Assembly: GCF_001019615.1 (NCBI RefSeq)
Contig: NZ_JNBQ01000001.1
Span: 372,001-436,000 of the forward strand
Direction: 5' to 3'
Origin: Cellulosimicrobium funkei
Lineage (GTDB): Bacteria; Actinomycetota; Actinomycetes; Actinomycetales; Cellulomonadaceae
Length of the DNA stretch: 64,000 nt
A program made the translations under genes and the position numbers. Under the pieces are notes generated by a model. The model saw only the letters and a list, made by a program, of their open reading frames with translations. It had not been told where the DNA came from and made no database searches. Within the stretch, counting starts at the first letter, position 1. The number at the start of each line of letters is the position of its first letter. Below, piece by piece: positions 30,146-60,826 of the stretch.

Positions 30146-31218
30146 GCACCCACGACCCCGGCGGCATCGGGGCGGGCGGCGAGCACGGCGACGAGCACCT
30201 CGCGTCGTCGGGCCGCGCCGACTCGTCCCGCGCCGACCTCTACATGCCGGGCGCCGTCCTGGAGGAGCCCGCGATCGTCGACGTCGCGGACGTGCGGCCG
30301 GAGCTCGCGAACCCCGACCTCGTCGACGCGATGGTCGCGCCGGACCGCACGGTCCACGCGAAGGTCGGCGAGCCGCTGCTCCAGATGCAGAACGTCACCG
30401 TCCAGTTCGGCGGCCTCGTCGCGCTCGACGACGTGTCGTTCGACATCCGGCGCGGCGAGATCCTCGGCCTCATCGGGCCGAACGGCGCGGGCAAGACGAC
30501 GGCGTTCAACGCGATGACGGGCGTCTACCGGCCCACCAAGGGACAGGTCGTCTTCGACGGGTCCCCGGTCGGCAAGCTCAAGCGGTACCGGATCACGCAG
30601 CGCGGCATCGCCCGCACGTTCCAGAACATCCGCCTGTTCAACGAGATGACGGCTCTCGAGAACGTCGTCGTCGGCTCGGACGCGCGGCACCGCACGTCCG
30701 TCCCGGGCGCCCTGCTCCGCACCCCGCGCCACCGGCGCGAGGAGCGCGACGCCATCGACCGGGCGCTCGCGCTGCTCGAGTTCGTGGGCGTCGGCGGGCG
30801 GGCGACCGAGAAGGCGCGCAACCTCTCCTACGGCGACCAGCGGCGCCTGGAGATCGCGCGCGCCCTGGCCACGGAGCCCAAGCTCCTGTGCCTCGACGAG
30901 CCCGCGGCGGGCTTCAACCCGGCGGAGAAGGAGTCCCTCATGGACCTCATCCGCCACATCCGCGACGACGGCTACACGGTCCTGCTCATCGAGCACGACA
31001 TGCGCCTCGTGCGCGGGGTGACCGACCGCATCGTCGTGCTCGAGTTCGGGCGCGTCATCGCGGACGGCACCCCCGACGAGGTCACGAGCGACCCCAAGGT
31101 CATCGCGGCCTACCTGGGCGTGCCGGACTCCGAGCTGACCGCCGACGAGGGGGGCACGGGCGCGGACCGTGCCGCCGGGCCGACGACCGAAGGAGGCAGC
31201 GGCGATGCCTCTGCTTGA
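30142..31218 (+). CDS. livG: Branched-chain amino-acid ABC transporter ATP-binding protein
   Basis: 358 residues. Walker [11 protein letters not shown]-loop [19 protein letters not shown], signature [19 protein letters not shown], Walker [14 protein letters not shown]-loop LLIEHDM. An unusual ~75-residue N-terminal extension, acidic and partly low-complexity ([19 protein letters not shown]), precedes the ATPase domain. Family members are normally 250-280 residues. The last 14 nt overlap livF. Confidence 0.92.
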
Positions 31219-55629: not shown

Positions 55630-57405
55630 ATGTCCCGTCGCCCACCCACCCGCACTTTCGCCCTGGGGGATCGCACCCGGCGCGTCGTCGCCGCGACGAT
55701 CGCCGCCGTCCTCGCCCTCGTCGGGGCGGTGGTCCTGGTCACCGGGCCGCAGGCCCGGTCGGCCTCGGCGGCGCTCGGGTTCTGCCCGGACCCCGGCGAC
55801 ATGCCCAACATCGGCAACCTGCCGGCCTTCACGGACTCGAACGTCACCGTCTACACAGGCGGTGACTACCGCGCCACGGCGAGCGCCGCAGAGTCCGAGG
55901 GCCTTCTCGTCGTCGGCGGTGACGCTGTCGTCGACGCTCCGGGGAACTTCAGCGTGGGTGCCGTCGGGGCGGGCTCGCAGATCACGCCGCCGGACGGGGC
56001 GGTGATGTTCGCCGTCGGAGAGGGCCTCGACATCGCGGCCGGAACGAGCGTCACCGTCGGCTCGACGCTGCCCAGCGGCGGCGCGGTGAACGTCGGCGGG
56101 ACCGTCACGGGAGCGGGGAGCCTCTCGACAGCGGGAACCGTCCCGGGCGTGGAAGCGCCCGTGACGGAGGGCATGGGGCCCGGTGCGCTCGCCGAGTGGT
56201 CCGACTTCGGGTCGGTGATAGCCGACGCGTCGAGCACGATCGCGGGGTGGCCGGCGACGACCGGTGTCGTGTCGGGGAACCGGGTCGTCTTCACGGGCAC
56301 CGGCACGGACGACCCGCAGGTGTTCTCCATCGACGCGACGGAGCTCGACGGCGTCACCGAGGTCGAGTTCGCCGCCATCCCGGAGGGCGCGGCGATCGCG
56401 ATCAACGTGACCGGCGACGCGCCCGTGGACTTCAGCCCGAACTTCTGGGTCGGCAACGGCGTCAACCAGATCAACGCGTTCGGCCCCCAGTTCGGCAACT
56501 GGGCCTCGCGGATCCTGTGGAACTTCGAGTCGACGCCGGAGCTCGCGCTGGGCCGGGCAGACCAGTTCCTCGGGACGATTCTCGCCCCGGCGGCGGACGC
56601 GACGATCACGACGAGCACCAACGGGCGCGTCCTCGTCGGGGGGAACCTCACGTTCGGCGACCCGAGCGTCACCGGCGGTCTCGAGATGCACAACTACCCG
56701 TGGATCGGCCCGGGACCGTTCGACTGCACCTCGGCAGCGAGCTTCGTCGTCCAGAAGACCGTGACGGGCGAGGCCGCCGCCGACGTGCCCGCCGGGACGA
56801 CGTTCGAGGTCGAGTACACGTACGAGGAGCCGGACGGGACGACCGGTGGCGACACGCTCGTCGTGCCGATCAGCGGCGCGCTCGTGAACGGTCCGACGCT
56901 GCCGGTCGACACCGTCGTGACGGTCACCGAGACGGACCTTCCTTCCGTGCCCGGCGTCGAGTGGGGAACGCCCGTGATCCAGGTGAACGGCGAGCCGCTG
57001 GGCGACCCCGCGCAGTTCACGATCCAGGAGAACCAGACCGTCACGGTGACCGTGGTGAACACGGCGAACGGCGGCGCCGTCCCGACGGTGGGCGGGTTCT
57101 CGGTGGCCAAGGCCGTGACGGGTGACGCCGCGGGGCTCGTCCCCGCCGACACCGCGTTCCTGGTCGACTGGGAGGCGGGGCTCCCCGAGGGGGCGACCTA
57201 CGACGGCGACCTGTCCGGCACGCTGACCGTCCTCGCGGACGGGACCGTGACGAACGGTCCCTCCGACCTGCCCGTCGGCACCACCGTCGCGCTCGCCGAG
57301 CGGACGCCGCTGCCCGAGGTGGACGGCGTCGAGTCGGGGGGGATCCGGTGCTCAGCCCGGCGTCGCCCGTCACGATCGTCGAGGGCGCGACCGGGGTCGC
57401 GGTGA
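55630..57405 (+). CDS. Surface adhesin, N-terminal part (choice-of-anchor A + DUF5979), frame broken at 57336-57342
   Basis: 591 codons as read. Signal sequence/transmembrane start (VVAATIAAVLALVGAVVLVTG), then a choice-of-anchor A domain (~50-360): SEGLLVVGGDAVVDAPGNFSVG, VVFTGTGTDDPQVFSIDATEL, ILWNFESTPELALGRADQFLGTILAP, and GRVLVGGNLTFGDPSVTGGLEMHNYPW. DUF5979 repeat 1 and most of repeat 2 follow. At a run of seven G (57336-57342) the frame shifts and ends in a basic nonsense tail (SGGIRCSARRRPSRSS). The conserved EWG-type sequence expected there is restored in the frame of the next entry, so these two are one gene broken by an indel. Confidence 0.85.
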   Translation: MSRRPPTRTFALGDRTRRVVAATIAAVLALVGAVVLVTGPQARSASAALGFCPDPGDMPNIGNLPAFTDSNVTVYTGGDYRATASAAESEGLLVVGGDAVVDAPGNFSVGAVGAGSQITPPDGAVMFAVGEGLDIAAGTSVTVGSTLPSGGAVNVGGTVTGAGSLSTAGTVPGVEAPVTEGMGPGALAEWSDFGSVIADASSTIAGWPATTGVVSGNRVVFTGTGTDDPQVFSIDATELDGVTEVEFAAIPEGAAIAINVTGDAPVDFSPNFWVGNGVNQINAFGPQFGNWASRILWNFESTPELALGRADQFLGTILAPAADATITTSTNGRVLVGGNLTFGDPSVTGGLEMHNYPWIGPGPFDCTSAASFVVQKTVTGEAAADVPAGTTFEVEYTYEEPDGTTGGDTLVVPISGALVNGPTLPVDTVVTVTETDLPSVPGVEWGTPVIQVNGEPLGDPAQFTIQENQTVTVTVVNTANGGAVPTVGGFSVAKAVTGDAAGLVPADTAFLVDWEAGLPEGATYDGDLSGTLTVLADGTVTNGPSDLPVGTTVALAERTPLPEVDGVESGGIRCSARRRPSRSSRARPGSR

Positions 57406-59091
57406 CCGTCACGAACGTCGCGGTCGCCGTCGTCGGGGGATTCACGGTGCAGAAGGCTCTCGAGGGAGGCGCGGCGAGCGCCGTCCCCGGTGACACCGCG
57501 TTCCTGGTCGACTGGACCGCGACCGTCCCCGCGGGCGTCGCGTACGACGGCGCCACGTCGGGCACGCTGACGGTGCGCGCCGACGGGACCGTGGCGAGCG
57601 GCCCGACCGACCTGCCGGTCGGCACGACGGTGACGCTCGCCGAGCAGCAGCCGCTGCCCGAGATCGCGGGCGTGGAGTGGGGTGTACCGACGCTCGAGCC
57701 TGCCTCCCCGATCACGATCGTCGAGGGACCGACCGGTGTCGCGGTGACCGTGACGAACACGGCGGACGCGCCCGCGGAGATCGGCGGGTTCGCGGTGCAG
57801 AAGTCCGTCACGGGCGACGCGTCGGGGGCGGTGCCGCCGGACACCGCGTTCGTCGTCGCGTGGGAGGCCGAGCTCCCCCCGGACTCCGGCTACGAGGGAG
57901 CGACCTCCGGGACGCTCACCGTGCTCGCGGACGGGACCGTGGTGGACGGGCCGCAGGACCTTCCCGAGGGCACGGTCGTGACGTTCACCGAGCAGACGAT
58001 CCCCGACGTCCCGGGCGTCGACTGGGGCACGCCCACCGTGTCGCCCGGCACCGTGACGATCGGTGACGGCGACGCCGTCGCGGGGGTCGTGGTGACGAAC
58101 ACGGCGACCGCGCGGACGGGCGGGTTCTCCGTCGCGAAGGCGGTCGAGGGCGGCCTCGCCGGGAGCGTGCCGCCGGGCACGCAGTTCGAGGTCGAGTGGT
58201 CCGCGACCCTGCCCGCGGGCTTCGCGTACGACGGCCCGCTCACGGGGACGCTGACCCCGCTCGCGGACGGCACCGTCGTCGACGGCCCGCAGGACCTCCC
58301 GGTGGGGACGGTCGTGACGTTCACCGAGATCAACCTGCCCGAGGTCGACGGCGTCGTCTGGGGCGCCCCCACGTTCTCCCCGGGGTCGGTGACGGTCGGG
58401 GACGGCGCGAACACCCTCGTCACGCTGACCAACACCACGCAGGACGTGGCCGAGGTCGGCGGGTTCTCCGTGGCCAAGGAGGTGACCGGCGACCGCGCGG
58501 AGCTCGTGCCCGCCGACACCCTGTTCACCGTCGCGTACTCGTACGAGCTCGACGGCACCCTCGTCGGCGGCTACCTCCAGGTCCCGGCCGACGGGACGGT
58601 CGTCGCCGGCCCGCAGAACCTCCCGGTCGGCACGGTCGTCACCTACACGGAGGCCGACCTGCCCGACATCACGGGCGTCGCGTGGGGCGTCCCGACGTTC
58701 AGCCCGCAGTCGGTGGTCGTCGGCGACGGGGACGACACCCTCGTCACCGTGACGAACACGGCGAACCAGGCGGCGGGCGGGTTCTCGCTGGTCAAGCGGG
58801 TGACCGGCGAGGCGTCCGCCGCCGTCCCCGCGACCACGGAGTTCGTCGTGGCCTACGCGTACGACTCGCCCGCCGGGACAGTCACCGGGACGCTGACCGT
58901 CCGCGCCGACGGGGTCCCGGTCGAGGGGCCGCAGGACCTCCCGGCCGGGACCGTCGTCCGGCTCACCGAGACGGAGCTGCCCGAGATCGGTGGGGTCGAC
59001 TGGGGCGCGCCGGCGTTCACCGTGGACGGCACGGCGGTCACCGAGGTGACGGTGGGTGACGGCACGGTGGTCGTGACGCTCACGAACACGG
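56740..59091 (+). repeat. Seven DUF5979 repeats in the adhesin gene
   Basis: Units start at 56740, 57094, 57438, 57786, 58122, 58461 and 58779. Spacings are 354, 344, 348, 336, 339 and 318 nt; only the second is not a multiple of 3, which locates the frame break to unit 2. Confidence 0.85.
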
Positions 59092-59216
59092 CGGGGGAGC
59101 AGGGTCTCGCGGTCACGGGCTCCGACGCGGTGCTCGTGACGACGCTCGCGCTGCTGTTCCTCGGGACCGGCGCCGCGCTCGTCGCGATCCGCGCCCGACG
59201 GGGCCGCACCGCCTGA
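57348..59216 (+). CDS. Surface adhesin, C-terminal part (DUF5979 repeats + LAVTG sortase anchor), same gene as previous
   Basis: 622 codons. In this frame repeat 2 finishes (SPASPVTIVEG, VTVTN), then five more DUF5979 repeats of about 106-116 residues follow, each with GGF(S/T)V.K.V.G, (L/V)P.(D/T)T.F, GTLT...DG, GPQDLP.GT.V...E, and GV.WG.P motifs. The C-terminus has LAVTGSD (59106-59120), a transmembrane helix (VLVTTLALLFLGTGAALVAI) and a basic tail RARRGRT. LAXTG is the motif of class E sortases in actinobacteria, so the product would be wall-anchored. It has no ribosome site of its own, so unless the frame is restored it would not be made as a surface protein. Confidence 0.85.
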   Translation: MLSPASPVTIVEGATGVAVTVTNVAVAVVGGFTVQKALEGGAASAVPGDTAFLVDWTATVPAGVAYDGATSGTLTVRADGTVASGPTDLPVGTTVTLAEQQPLPEIAGVEWGVPTLEPASPITIVEGPTGVAVTVTNTADAPAEIGGFAVQKSVTGDASGAVPPDTAFVVAWEAELPPDSGYEGATSGTLTVLADGTVVDGPQDLPEGTVVTFTEQTIPDVPGVDWGTPTVSPGTVTIGDGDAVAGVVVTNTATARTGGFSVAKAVEGGLAGSVPPGTQFEVEWSATLPAGFAYDGPLTGTLTPLADGTVVDGPQDLPVGTVVTFTEINLPEVDGVVWGAPTFSPGSVTVGDGANTLVTLTNTTQDVAEVGGFSVAKEVTGDRAELVPADTLFTVAYSYELDGTLVGGYLQVPADGTVVAGPQNLPVGTVVTYTEADLPDITGVAWGVPTFSPQSVVVGDGDDTLVTVTNTANQAAGGFSLVKRVTGEASAAVPATTEFVVAYAYDSPAGTVTGTLTVRADGVPVEGPQDLPAGTVVRLTETELPEIGGVDWGAPAFTVDGTAVTEVTVGDGTVVVTLTNTAGEQGLAVTGSDAVLVTTLALLFLGTGAALVAIRARRGRTA

Positions 59217-60770: not shown

Positions 60771-60810
60771 CAGGTCGCGGCAGGGCGCGACAGGTCGCGA
60801 CAGGTCGCGA
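60771..60810. repeat. Four tandem 10-bp repeats
   Basis: CAGGTCGCGG, CAGGGCGCGA, CAGGTCGCGA, CAGGTCGCGA follow each other exactly between the convergent stops at 60754 and 60827. The preceding GCGACCTG (60757-60764) pairs with the first unit, so part of the array may fold as a terminator stem. Confidence 0.65.
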
Positions 60811-60826
60811 CCTCGCGCCGGCAGGC

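What the first reader, a model, noticed from the sequence alone, without database searches (positions are those of the whole stretch)
55630..59216. LAXTG-anchored adhesin switched off by an indel in a G7 run
The seven-repeat choice-of-anchor A/DUF5979 protein is in frame 1 up to 57336-57342 (seven consecutive G) and in frame 3 after it. The spacing between repeats 2 and 3 (344 nt) is the only one not divisible by 3. Both halves remain clean coding sequence with no further stops, so the break is recent, phase-variable or a sequencing error. Homopolymeric G runs are classic slipped-strand sites in surface genes.
Basis: partly seen in the sequence, partly recalled or inferred. Interest (0 to 1): 0.7.

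Follow-up and report, generated by a model that had tools for sequence, protein, structure and literature searches.

The report
Adhesin gene broken in error-prone assembly
A bacterial surface-protein gene looks cut in two at a run of Gs, but this genome assembly breaks many unrelated genes at such runs, so the cut is more likely a sequencing fault than an on/off switch.

Summary
A Cellulosimicrobium choice-of-anchor A/DUF5979 protein with an LAVTG anchor is in frame 1 up to the only G7 run of the window (57336-57342) and in frame 3 after it. Nine close orthologs in the genus are unbroken.

The off-switch reading is not supported. The run is not conserved: 2 of 9 orthologs have six Gs there, 7 of 9 have two to four. 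The same assembly has a confident frame change at 16 of 24 G/C runs of seven or more with coding sequence on both sides; a single-contig relative has 0 of 5. Against C. cellulans orthologs, 14 of 14 other broken runs carry exactly one surplus base, and 8 of 8 in-frame runs carry none. Victims include trpA, thiL, an ABC ATPase signature and rho. This is the pattern of over-called G runs, not of a tuned surface-gene switch.

A caveat remains. The focal site has two surplus bases, one of them not a G, so the systematic fault explains only one. A real strain-specific insertion cannot be excluded without reads.

By-product: the adhesive head exists in two alleles, about 48% identical, that move independently of the stalk.

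The parts
55630..57405 (+). 5' part of the adhesin gene as assembled: signal region, adhesive head, DUF5979 repeat 1 and most of repeat 2; ends in an out-of-frame tail and stop after the G run
55846..56658 (+). adhesive head (PF20597 ice-binding-like adhesive domain, within TIGR04215 choice-of-anchor A); allele type A
   Evidence: allele typing
56743..57063 (+). DUF5979 repeat 1 (CnaB-like stalk domain)
   Evidence: residues 372-478 of the 5' part
57097..57440 (+). DUF5979 repeat 2, split by the frame break between its conserved Glu and Asn
57335..57342 (+). site of the frame break: the G7 run 57336-57342 and the base before it; two surplus bases against all relatives aligned
57348..59216 (+). 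3' part of the gene in frame 3: DUF5979 repeats 3-7 and cell-wall anchor, 622 aa
59106..59120 (+). LAVTG, a class E (LAXTG) sorting signal, followed by a hydrophobic stretch and an Arg-rich tail
   Evidence: sequence; signal type from PMC5148588 abstract; class E sortase in the same genome

Best explanation
The gene encodes an ordinary sortase-anchored actinobacterial surface protein: a secreted adhesive head on a stalk of seven CnaB-like DUF5979 domains, fixed to the wall at LAVTG by the genome's class E sortase. The frame break is most likely, wholly or in part, a base-calling or assembly fault at a G run that this assembly handles badly. The gene is probably intact in the cell and is not phase-variable at this site. 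Shown: the break, the intact orthologs, the missing tract in relatives, and the systematic one-base excess at G/C runs across the genome. Inferred: that this excess is technical rather than biological, and that both surplus bases at the focal site come from it (only one fits the systematic pattern). The adhesive and anchoring functions are inferred from family membership.
For: Of 50 G/C runs of seven or more in the genome, 47 were read. 24 had confident coding sequence on both sides: 8 in frame, 15 shifted by +1, 1 (focal) by +2; runs of four in the same DNA gave 819 in frame and 41 shifted, gene boundaries included; a single-contig relative, G004, gave 5 in frame and 0 shifted at runs of seven or more. 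DNA comparison with C. cellulans G002: 14 of 14 shifted runs that had an ortholog carry exactly one surplus base with no other gap in about 300 columns; 8 of 8 in-frame runs carry none. One protein family continues across the run in trpA (profile 112|118), thiL (134|139), ABC_tran (110|112), DUF993, DUF3866 and a luciferase-like monooxygenase; rho is also hit. Nine close orthologs are open over 1203-1329 aa. The tract is not conserved.
Against: The focal site has two surplus bases, one of them not a G, whereas all 14 other shifted runs compared have exactly one. Taking the systematic fault away would still leave one surplus base. Apart from that fault the assembly looks clean in the stretches compared around the runs, so a second independent error at the same spot is not expected. 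No reads and no second genome of the same species were available; the sequencing platform is unknown. MutS is absent and the NucS pathway does not correct indels (PMC8228993 abstract and passages), so real slips are possible in this organism.
Confidence: 0.6

Rival explanations
1. Real strain-specific frameshift: a short insertion inactivated the adhesin in this isolate, perhaps with one G over-called on top. The product would be a secreted, unanchored head plus one and a half stalk domains.
For: Net two surplus bases, one not a G, unlike every other broken run compared. Surface adhesins are often dispensable: 6 of the other 16 genus genomes show no close ortholog (my reading). Two-base expansions of a G7 tract occur in an actinobacterium: 2 of 1031 M. 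tuberculosis isolates at glpK (PMC6667613 passages).
Against: The break falls exactly on the only G7 run of the window, in an assembly where such runs are usually wrong. Both halves are otherwise clean, and the 3' half is 97% identical to the G002 protein, so decay must be very recent.
Confidence: 0.28
2. Phase-variable contingency locus: slipped-strand changes in the G run switch the adhesin on and off.
For: G7 in the coding part of a surface-protein gene. No MutS. Reversible G7 expansion is described for M. tuberculosis glpK (PMC6667613).
Against: No conserved tract: G6 in 2 of 9 orthologs, two to four Gs in 7 of 9. The difference is not in G number alone. Equivalent runs sit in trpA, thiL and an ABC ATPase, which are not surface genes. 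No second phase state was seen.
Confidence: 0.07
3. Programmed -1 frameshifting or slippage on the run joins the two halves, so the full protein is made from the sequence as assembled.
For: Read in frame 1, the run is G-GGG-GGG, a -1 slippery heptamer by shape (sequence; that such heptamers slip is recalled), and a -1 step enters the downstream frame.
Against: 15 of 15 related sequences aligned need no frameshift and lack the run of seven. A product made this way would still lack the invariant Trp of the repeat.
Confidence: 0.02

Closest known systems
Cellulosimicrobium choice-of-anchor A/DUF5979 surface proteins (G014, G016, G010, G008, G002, G012, G007, G006, G004)
   Same: Same architecture, and flanking DNA shared with the relatives aligned (four); 67-86% identity in the 5' part, 68-97% in the 3' part
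   Different: All nine are open in one frame; only the window copy is broken
Mycobacterium tuberculosis glpK G7 tract (reversible frameshift)
   Same: Actinobacterium, G7 in a coding region, one-base and rare two-base expansions (PMC6667613 passages)
   Different: There Sanger-verified in a panel of isolates; here a single assembly with a systematic excess at G runs and a change that is not in G number alone
Homopolymer frameshift errors in draft assemblies
   Same: Length errors at homopolymers that rise with run length and break genes (PMC3277595 passages)
   Different: That paper reports 454 errors biased to A and T; here only G/C runs were examined and the platform is unknown
Class E sortase substrates with LAXTG signals (SrtE1 of Streptomyces coelicolor)
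   Same: LAVTG anchor, and a class E sortase in the same genome (PMC5148588 abstract)
   Different: Anchoring not tested here

Membership tests
Slipped-strand phase-variable (contingency) gene | Long tract present at the same site across relatives, whatever its length | tested here: not met
   9 orthologs: G6 in 2, G4 in 6, G2 in 1
Slipped-strand phase-variable (contingency) gene | On and off states differ by number of tract units only | tested here: not met
   Two surplus bases, one not a G
Slipped-strand phase-variable (contingency) gene | Both states found within one strain | not testable with these tools
   No reads, no second genome of the species
Systematic homopolymer error of the assembly | Same kind of length error at unrelated runs genome-wide | tested here: met
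   14 of 14 shifted runs with an ortholog, +1 each; 8 of 8 in-frame runs exact
Systematic homopolymer error of the assembly | Focal site shows that same error and nothing else | tested here: not met
   +2 rather than +1
Systematic homopolymer error of the assembly | Reads disagree with the consensus | not testable with these tools
   No reads held
Choice-of-anchor A family (TIGR04215) | Model score above the curated cut-off | tested here: met
   145.1 bits against 29
DUF5979 (PF19407) CnaB-like stalk domains | Model score above the curated cut-off | tested here: met
   71.8 and 221 bits against 25; 2 + 5 stretches
DUF5979 (PF19407) CnaB-like stalk domains | Lys, Glu and Asn for an intramolecular isopeptide bond | tested here: inconclusive
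   Read by eye in 7 of 7 repeats of the sequence; triad named in a table row of PMC12617251; no structure made
LAXTG class E sortase substrate | LAXTG, hydrophobic stretch, basic tail, and a class E sortase in the genome | tested here: met
   LAVTG at 59106-59120 (by eye); NF033747 at 233.2 bits against 160
LAXTG class E sortase substrate | Covalent wall anchoring | not testable with these tools
   needs a wall-fraction experiment

The most novel reading that the evidence does not exclude
The G-run expansions are real. This actinobacterium without MutS, or the cultured line that was sequenced, has accumulated one-base G-run expansions in at least 15 genes at once, rho, thiL, trpA and the adhesin among the affected genes, and lives with them through reversion, mixed populations or slippage during expression. 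That would be a genome-wide, slip-based source of heterogeneity.
Probability: 0.04. Interest if true: 0.75.

Novelty: not a real feature. Interest (0 to 1): 0.2.

Why it matters
It removes a tempting but unsupported case of surface-protein phase variation and gives a simple within-genome control (all other long G/C runs, plus ortholog alignment) for such claims in high-GC drafts. If the break proved real, it would be one strain-specific loss of an adhesin. The two-allele adhesive head that recombines independently of its stalk is the sturdier biological lead.

Tried and rejected
One-G slip: rejected as the sole change, because all relatives aligned differ by two bases. Conserved slippery tract: rejected. 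Programmed -1 frameshift: rejected because 15 of 15 related sequences do not need it. Excess of G7 runs in this assembly: not seen. G000 has 54 pattern matches; the relatives G004, G006 and G012 have 54, 56 and 54. This count is against a crude over-calling signature, and only the frame and ortholog tests showed the fault.

Dead ends: one search aligned four loci on the wrong strand and was redone. One search was a first pass without confidence limits, replaced. Comparison of the 64 kb with a 90-kb stretch of G002 covered only 23.6 kb because the shared DNA on that contig starts at window 37.7 kb; 42 of its 59 indels are not multiples of three, many of them apparently in intergenic or poorly aligned DNA, which I did not sort one by one. 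The three shifted runs of six: the window one at 31149 and L085:2347 look like gene boundaries; L070:2802 may be another broken gene, unresolved. Literature for the assembly's platform found nothing usable.

Rows dropped: 22 of 47 runs were unclear and 1 at an edge; three of the 50 G/C runs (on C62, C64, C68) were not fetched; L004 and L076 had no G002 hit. The G004 control read 23 runs, 18 of them unclear, so 0 of 5 is a small control.

Full report
WHAT IS THERE. The window lies in a Cellulosimicrobium draft genome (G000:C1:372001-436000; 4,658,729 bases in 85 contigs; the genus is taken from the named relatives). From an ATG at 55630 a frame-1 reading encodes a signal region, a PF20597 adhesive domain within the TIGR04215 choice-of-anchor A family, and DUF5979 repeats; a frame-3 reading to 59216 encodes five more DUF5979 repeats and an LAVTG anchor. 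The repeat spacings are 354, 344, 348, 336, 339 and 318; only 344 is not a multiple of three. The change of frame falls at 57336-57342, the only G or C run of seven or more in the 64 kb.

THE GENE IN RELATIVES. Of 17 genus genomes searched (16 besides the window's own), nine carry a close ortholog of the 5' part (67-86% identity) open over 1203-1329 aa without a stop, and a tenth, G011, at 59% is open over 1772 aa. The 3' part is found at 68-97% in the same nine. At the junction, 15 of 15 related sequences (9 orthologs, G011, four tandem paralogs, one Oerskovia) read straight through with an invariant Trp codon. Against G002, G014 and G006 (L043, L039, L044) the window has two surplus bases there. 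That is the only net change of frame in the gene; the other odd-length gaps, near 56483 and 56653-56671, cancel to multiples of three. One of the two surplus bases is not a G. The G tract is not a shared feature: six Gs in 2 of 9 orthologs, four in 6, two in 1.

THE CONTROL THAT DECIDES MOST. If the run were a special switch, other long G/C runs of the genome should be harmless. They are not. I read 47 of the 50 runs of seven or more with 1.5 kb on either side where available and called the coding frame on each side by codon usage. Of 24 with confident calls on both sides, 8 were in frame, 15 shifted by +1 and 1, the focal one, by +2; 22 were unclear and 1 at an edge. In the same DNA, runs of six gave 17 in frame, 2 shifted +1, 1 shifted +2 and 1 change of strand (24 unclear, 5 at an edge); runs of four gave 819 in frame and 41 shifted, gene boundaries included (648 unclear, 134 at an edge, 17 changes of strand). 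The relative G004, a single contig, gave 5 in frame and 0 shifted at runs of seven or more (18 of 23 unclear; a small control). A separate Viterbi frame model placed 18 of its 27 frame-change candidates within about 25 bases of a run of six to eight; the stretches had been chosen around such runs, so only the position inside each stretch is informative.

ORTHOLOG CHECK OF THE CONTROL. I aligned these stretches with C. cellulans G002. Of the 15 shifted runs, 13 had an ortholog (L004 and L076 had none); L085, unclear but flagged, makes 14. In 14 of 14 the window's genome has exactly one surplus base and no other gap in about 300 columns. In 8 of 8 in-frame runs there is no gap. The broken genes are mostly not surface genes: one family model continues across the run in trpA (TIGR00262 112|118), thiL (NF004351 134|139), an ABC ATPase (PF00005 110|112, inside the signature motif), DUF993, DUF3866 and a luciferase-like monooxygenase. 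The run in L069 lies upstream of the Rho RNA-binding domain, with one surplus base against G002. An isolate that had really lost all of these at once is hard to imagine (inference; the need for rho and thiL is recalled). A base-calling or assembly fault at G/C runs is the simpler reading. Homopolymer errors that grow with run length and break genes in drafts are described (PMC3277595, passages), though that paper reports an A/T bias for 454 and I do not know this assembly's platform.

WHAT THIS DOES NOT EXPLAIN. The focal site carries two surplus bases and the other 14 carry one. The systematic fault accounts for one. The second may be a linked fault at the same spot or a real insertion in this strain. 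I put about 0.6 on the gene being intact in the cell and 0.28 on a real, strain-specific break. Real slips are conceivable in this organism: MutS_V is not found, while a NucS_C match in an open frame of 246 aa is present; NucS-type repair does not correct indels (PMC8228993, abstract and passages); and M. tuberculosis shows G7 expansions in glpK, 45 one-base and 2 two-base among 1031 isolates (PMC6667613, passages).

HOW THE PROTEIN PROBABLY WORKS. By family, it is a secreted adhesive head (ice-binding-like by Pfam name) on seven CnaB-like DUF5979 domains. A survey of isopeptide bonds lists DUF5979 as CnaB-like with a Lys-Glu-Asn triad (PMC12617251, one table passage); by eye, matching K, E and N occur in 7 of 7 repeats (sequence). 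The break falls in repeat 2 between its Glu and Asn. LAVTG fits the LAXTG signal of class E sortases (PMC5148588, abstract), and the genome encodes one at C1:87136-87537 (NF033747, 233.2 bits against a cut-off of 160). Neighbours are a GH3 and a GH16 gene on the other strand upstream and an AHSA1 gene downstream. Binding and anchoring are inferred. If the break were real, the product would be a secreted, unanchored head with one and a half stalk domains.

A BY-PRODUCT WORTH MORE THAN THE SWITCH. Most of the flanks and the repeats are 94-100% identical to G002 in DNA, with a few lower bins, but the head region drops to 58-68% between about 55850 and 56600. In protein, the heads fall into two groups: type A (window, G014, G016, G010, G008; 75-96%) and type B (G002, G012, G007, G006, G004; 79-99%), 46-50% between groups. 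The head tree puts the window with type A and Oerskovia (100/100), away from G002; the tree of repeats 3-7 pairs the window with G002 (100/100). Heads have thus been exchanged on a common stalk. I found no paper on this: searches for 'DUF5979' and 'choice-of-anchor A' returned 1 and 6 papers, of which I saw the listings and one passage, none about it.

VERDICT. Observation confirmed. Interpretation as an off-switch not supported, and sequencing or assembly error favoured. Interest low.

Noticed in passing
window 55846-56658: The adhesive head exists in two alleles (46-50% identical between types) that are distributed independently of the stalk repeats and flanks; head and repeat trees conflict with strong support.
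   Followed up: yes
L001, L004, L008, L058, L062, L063, L066-L069, L071, L073, L076, L077, L082, L085: Genes of the same assembly broken at G/C runs of seven or eight, trpA, thiL and rho among them (L004 and L076 by codon usage only). Annotations of this genome should be treated with care.
   Followed up: yes
L026, L027, L028, L029: G004, G006, G007 and G012 carry a second, much larger paralog (3149-3598 aa open frame) next to this gene, with a third head type; I saw none beside the window gene.
   Followed up: partly
L041 (QAPD01000004.1): The public record named Sphaerisporangium cinnabarinum ATCC 31213 carries this Cellulosimicrobium locus, and a contig of the same length (236,619) is held in this genus as G008:C69; the name looks wrong.
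   Followed up: no
L070:2802-2807: A run of six with a frame change in the codon-usage scans, possibly another broken gene.
   Followed up: no
window 60785-60820: Short direct repeat (about ten bases, acaggtcgcg) that differs in length from G002.
   Followed up: no
window 57097-57440: The break splits repeat 2 between the Glu and Asn that would form its isopeptide bond (sequence, by eye).
   Followed up: partly
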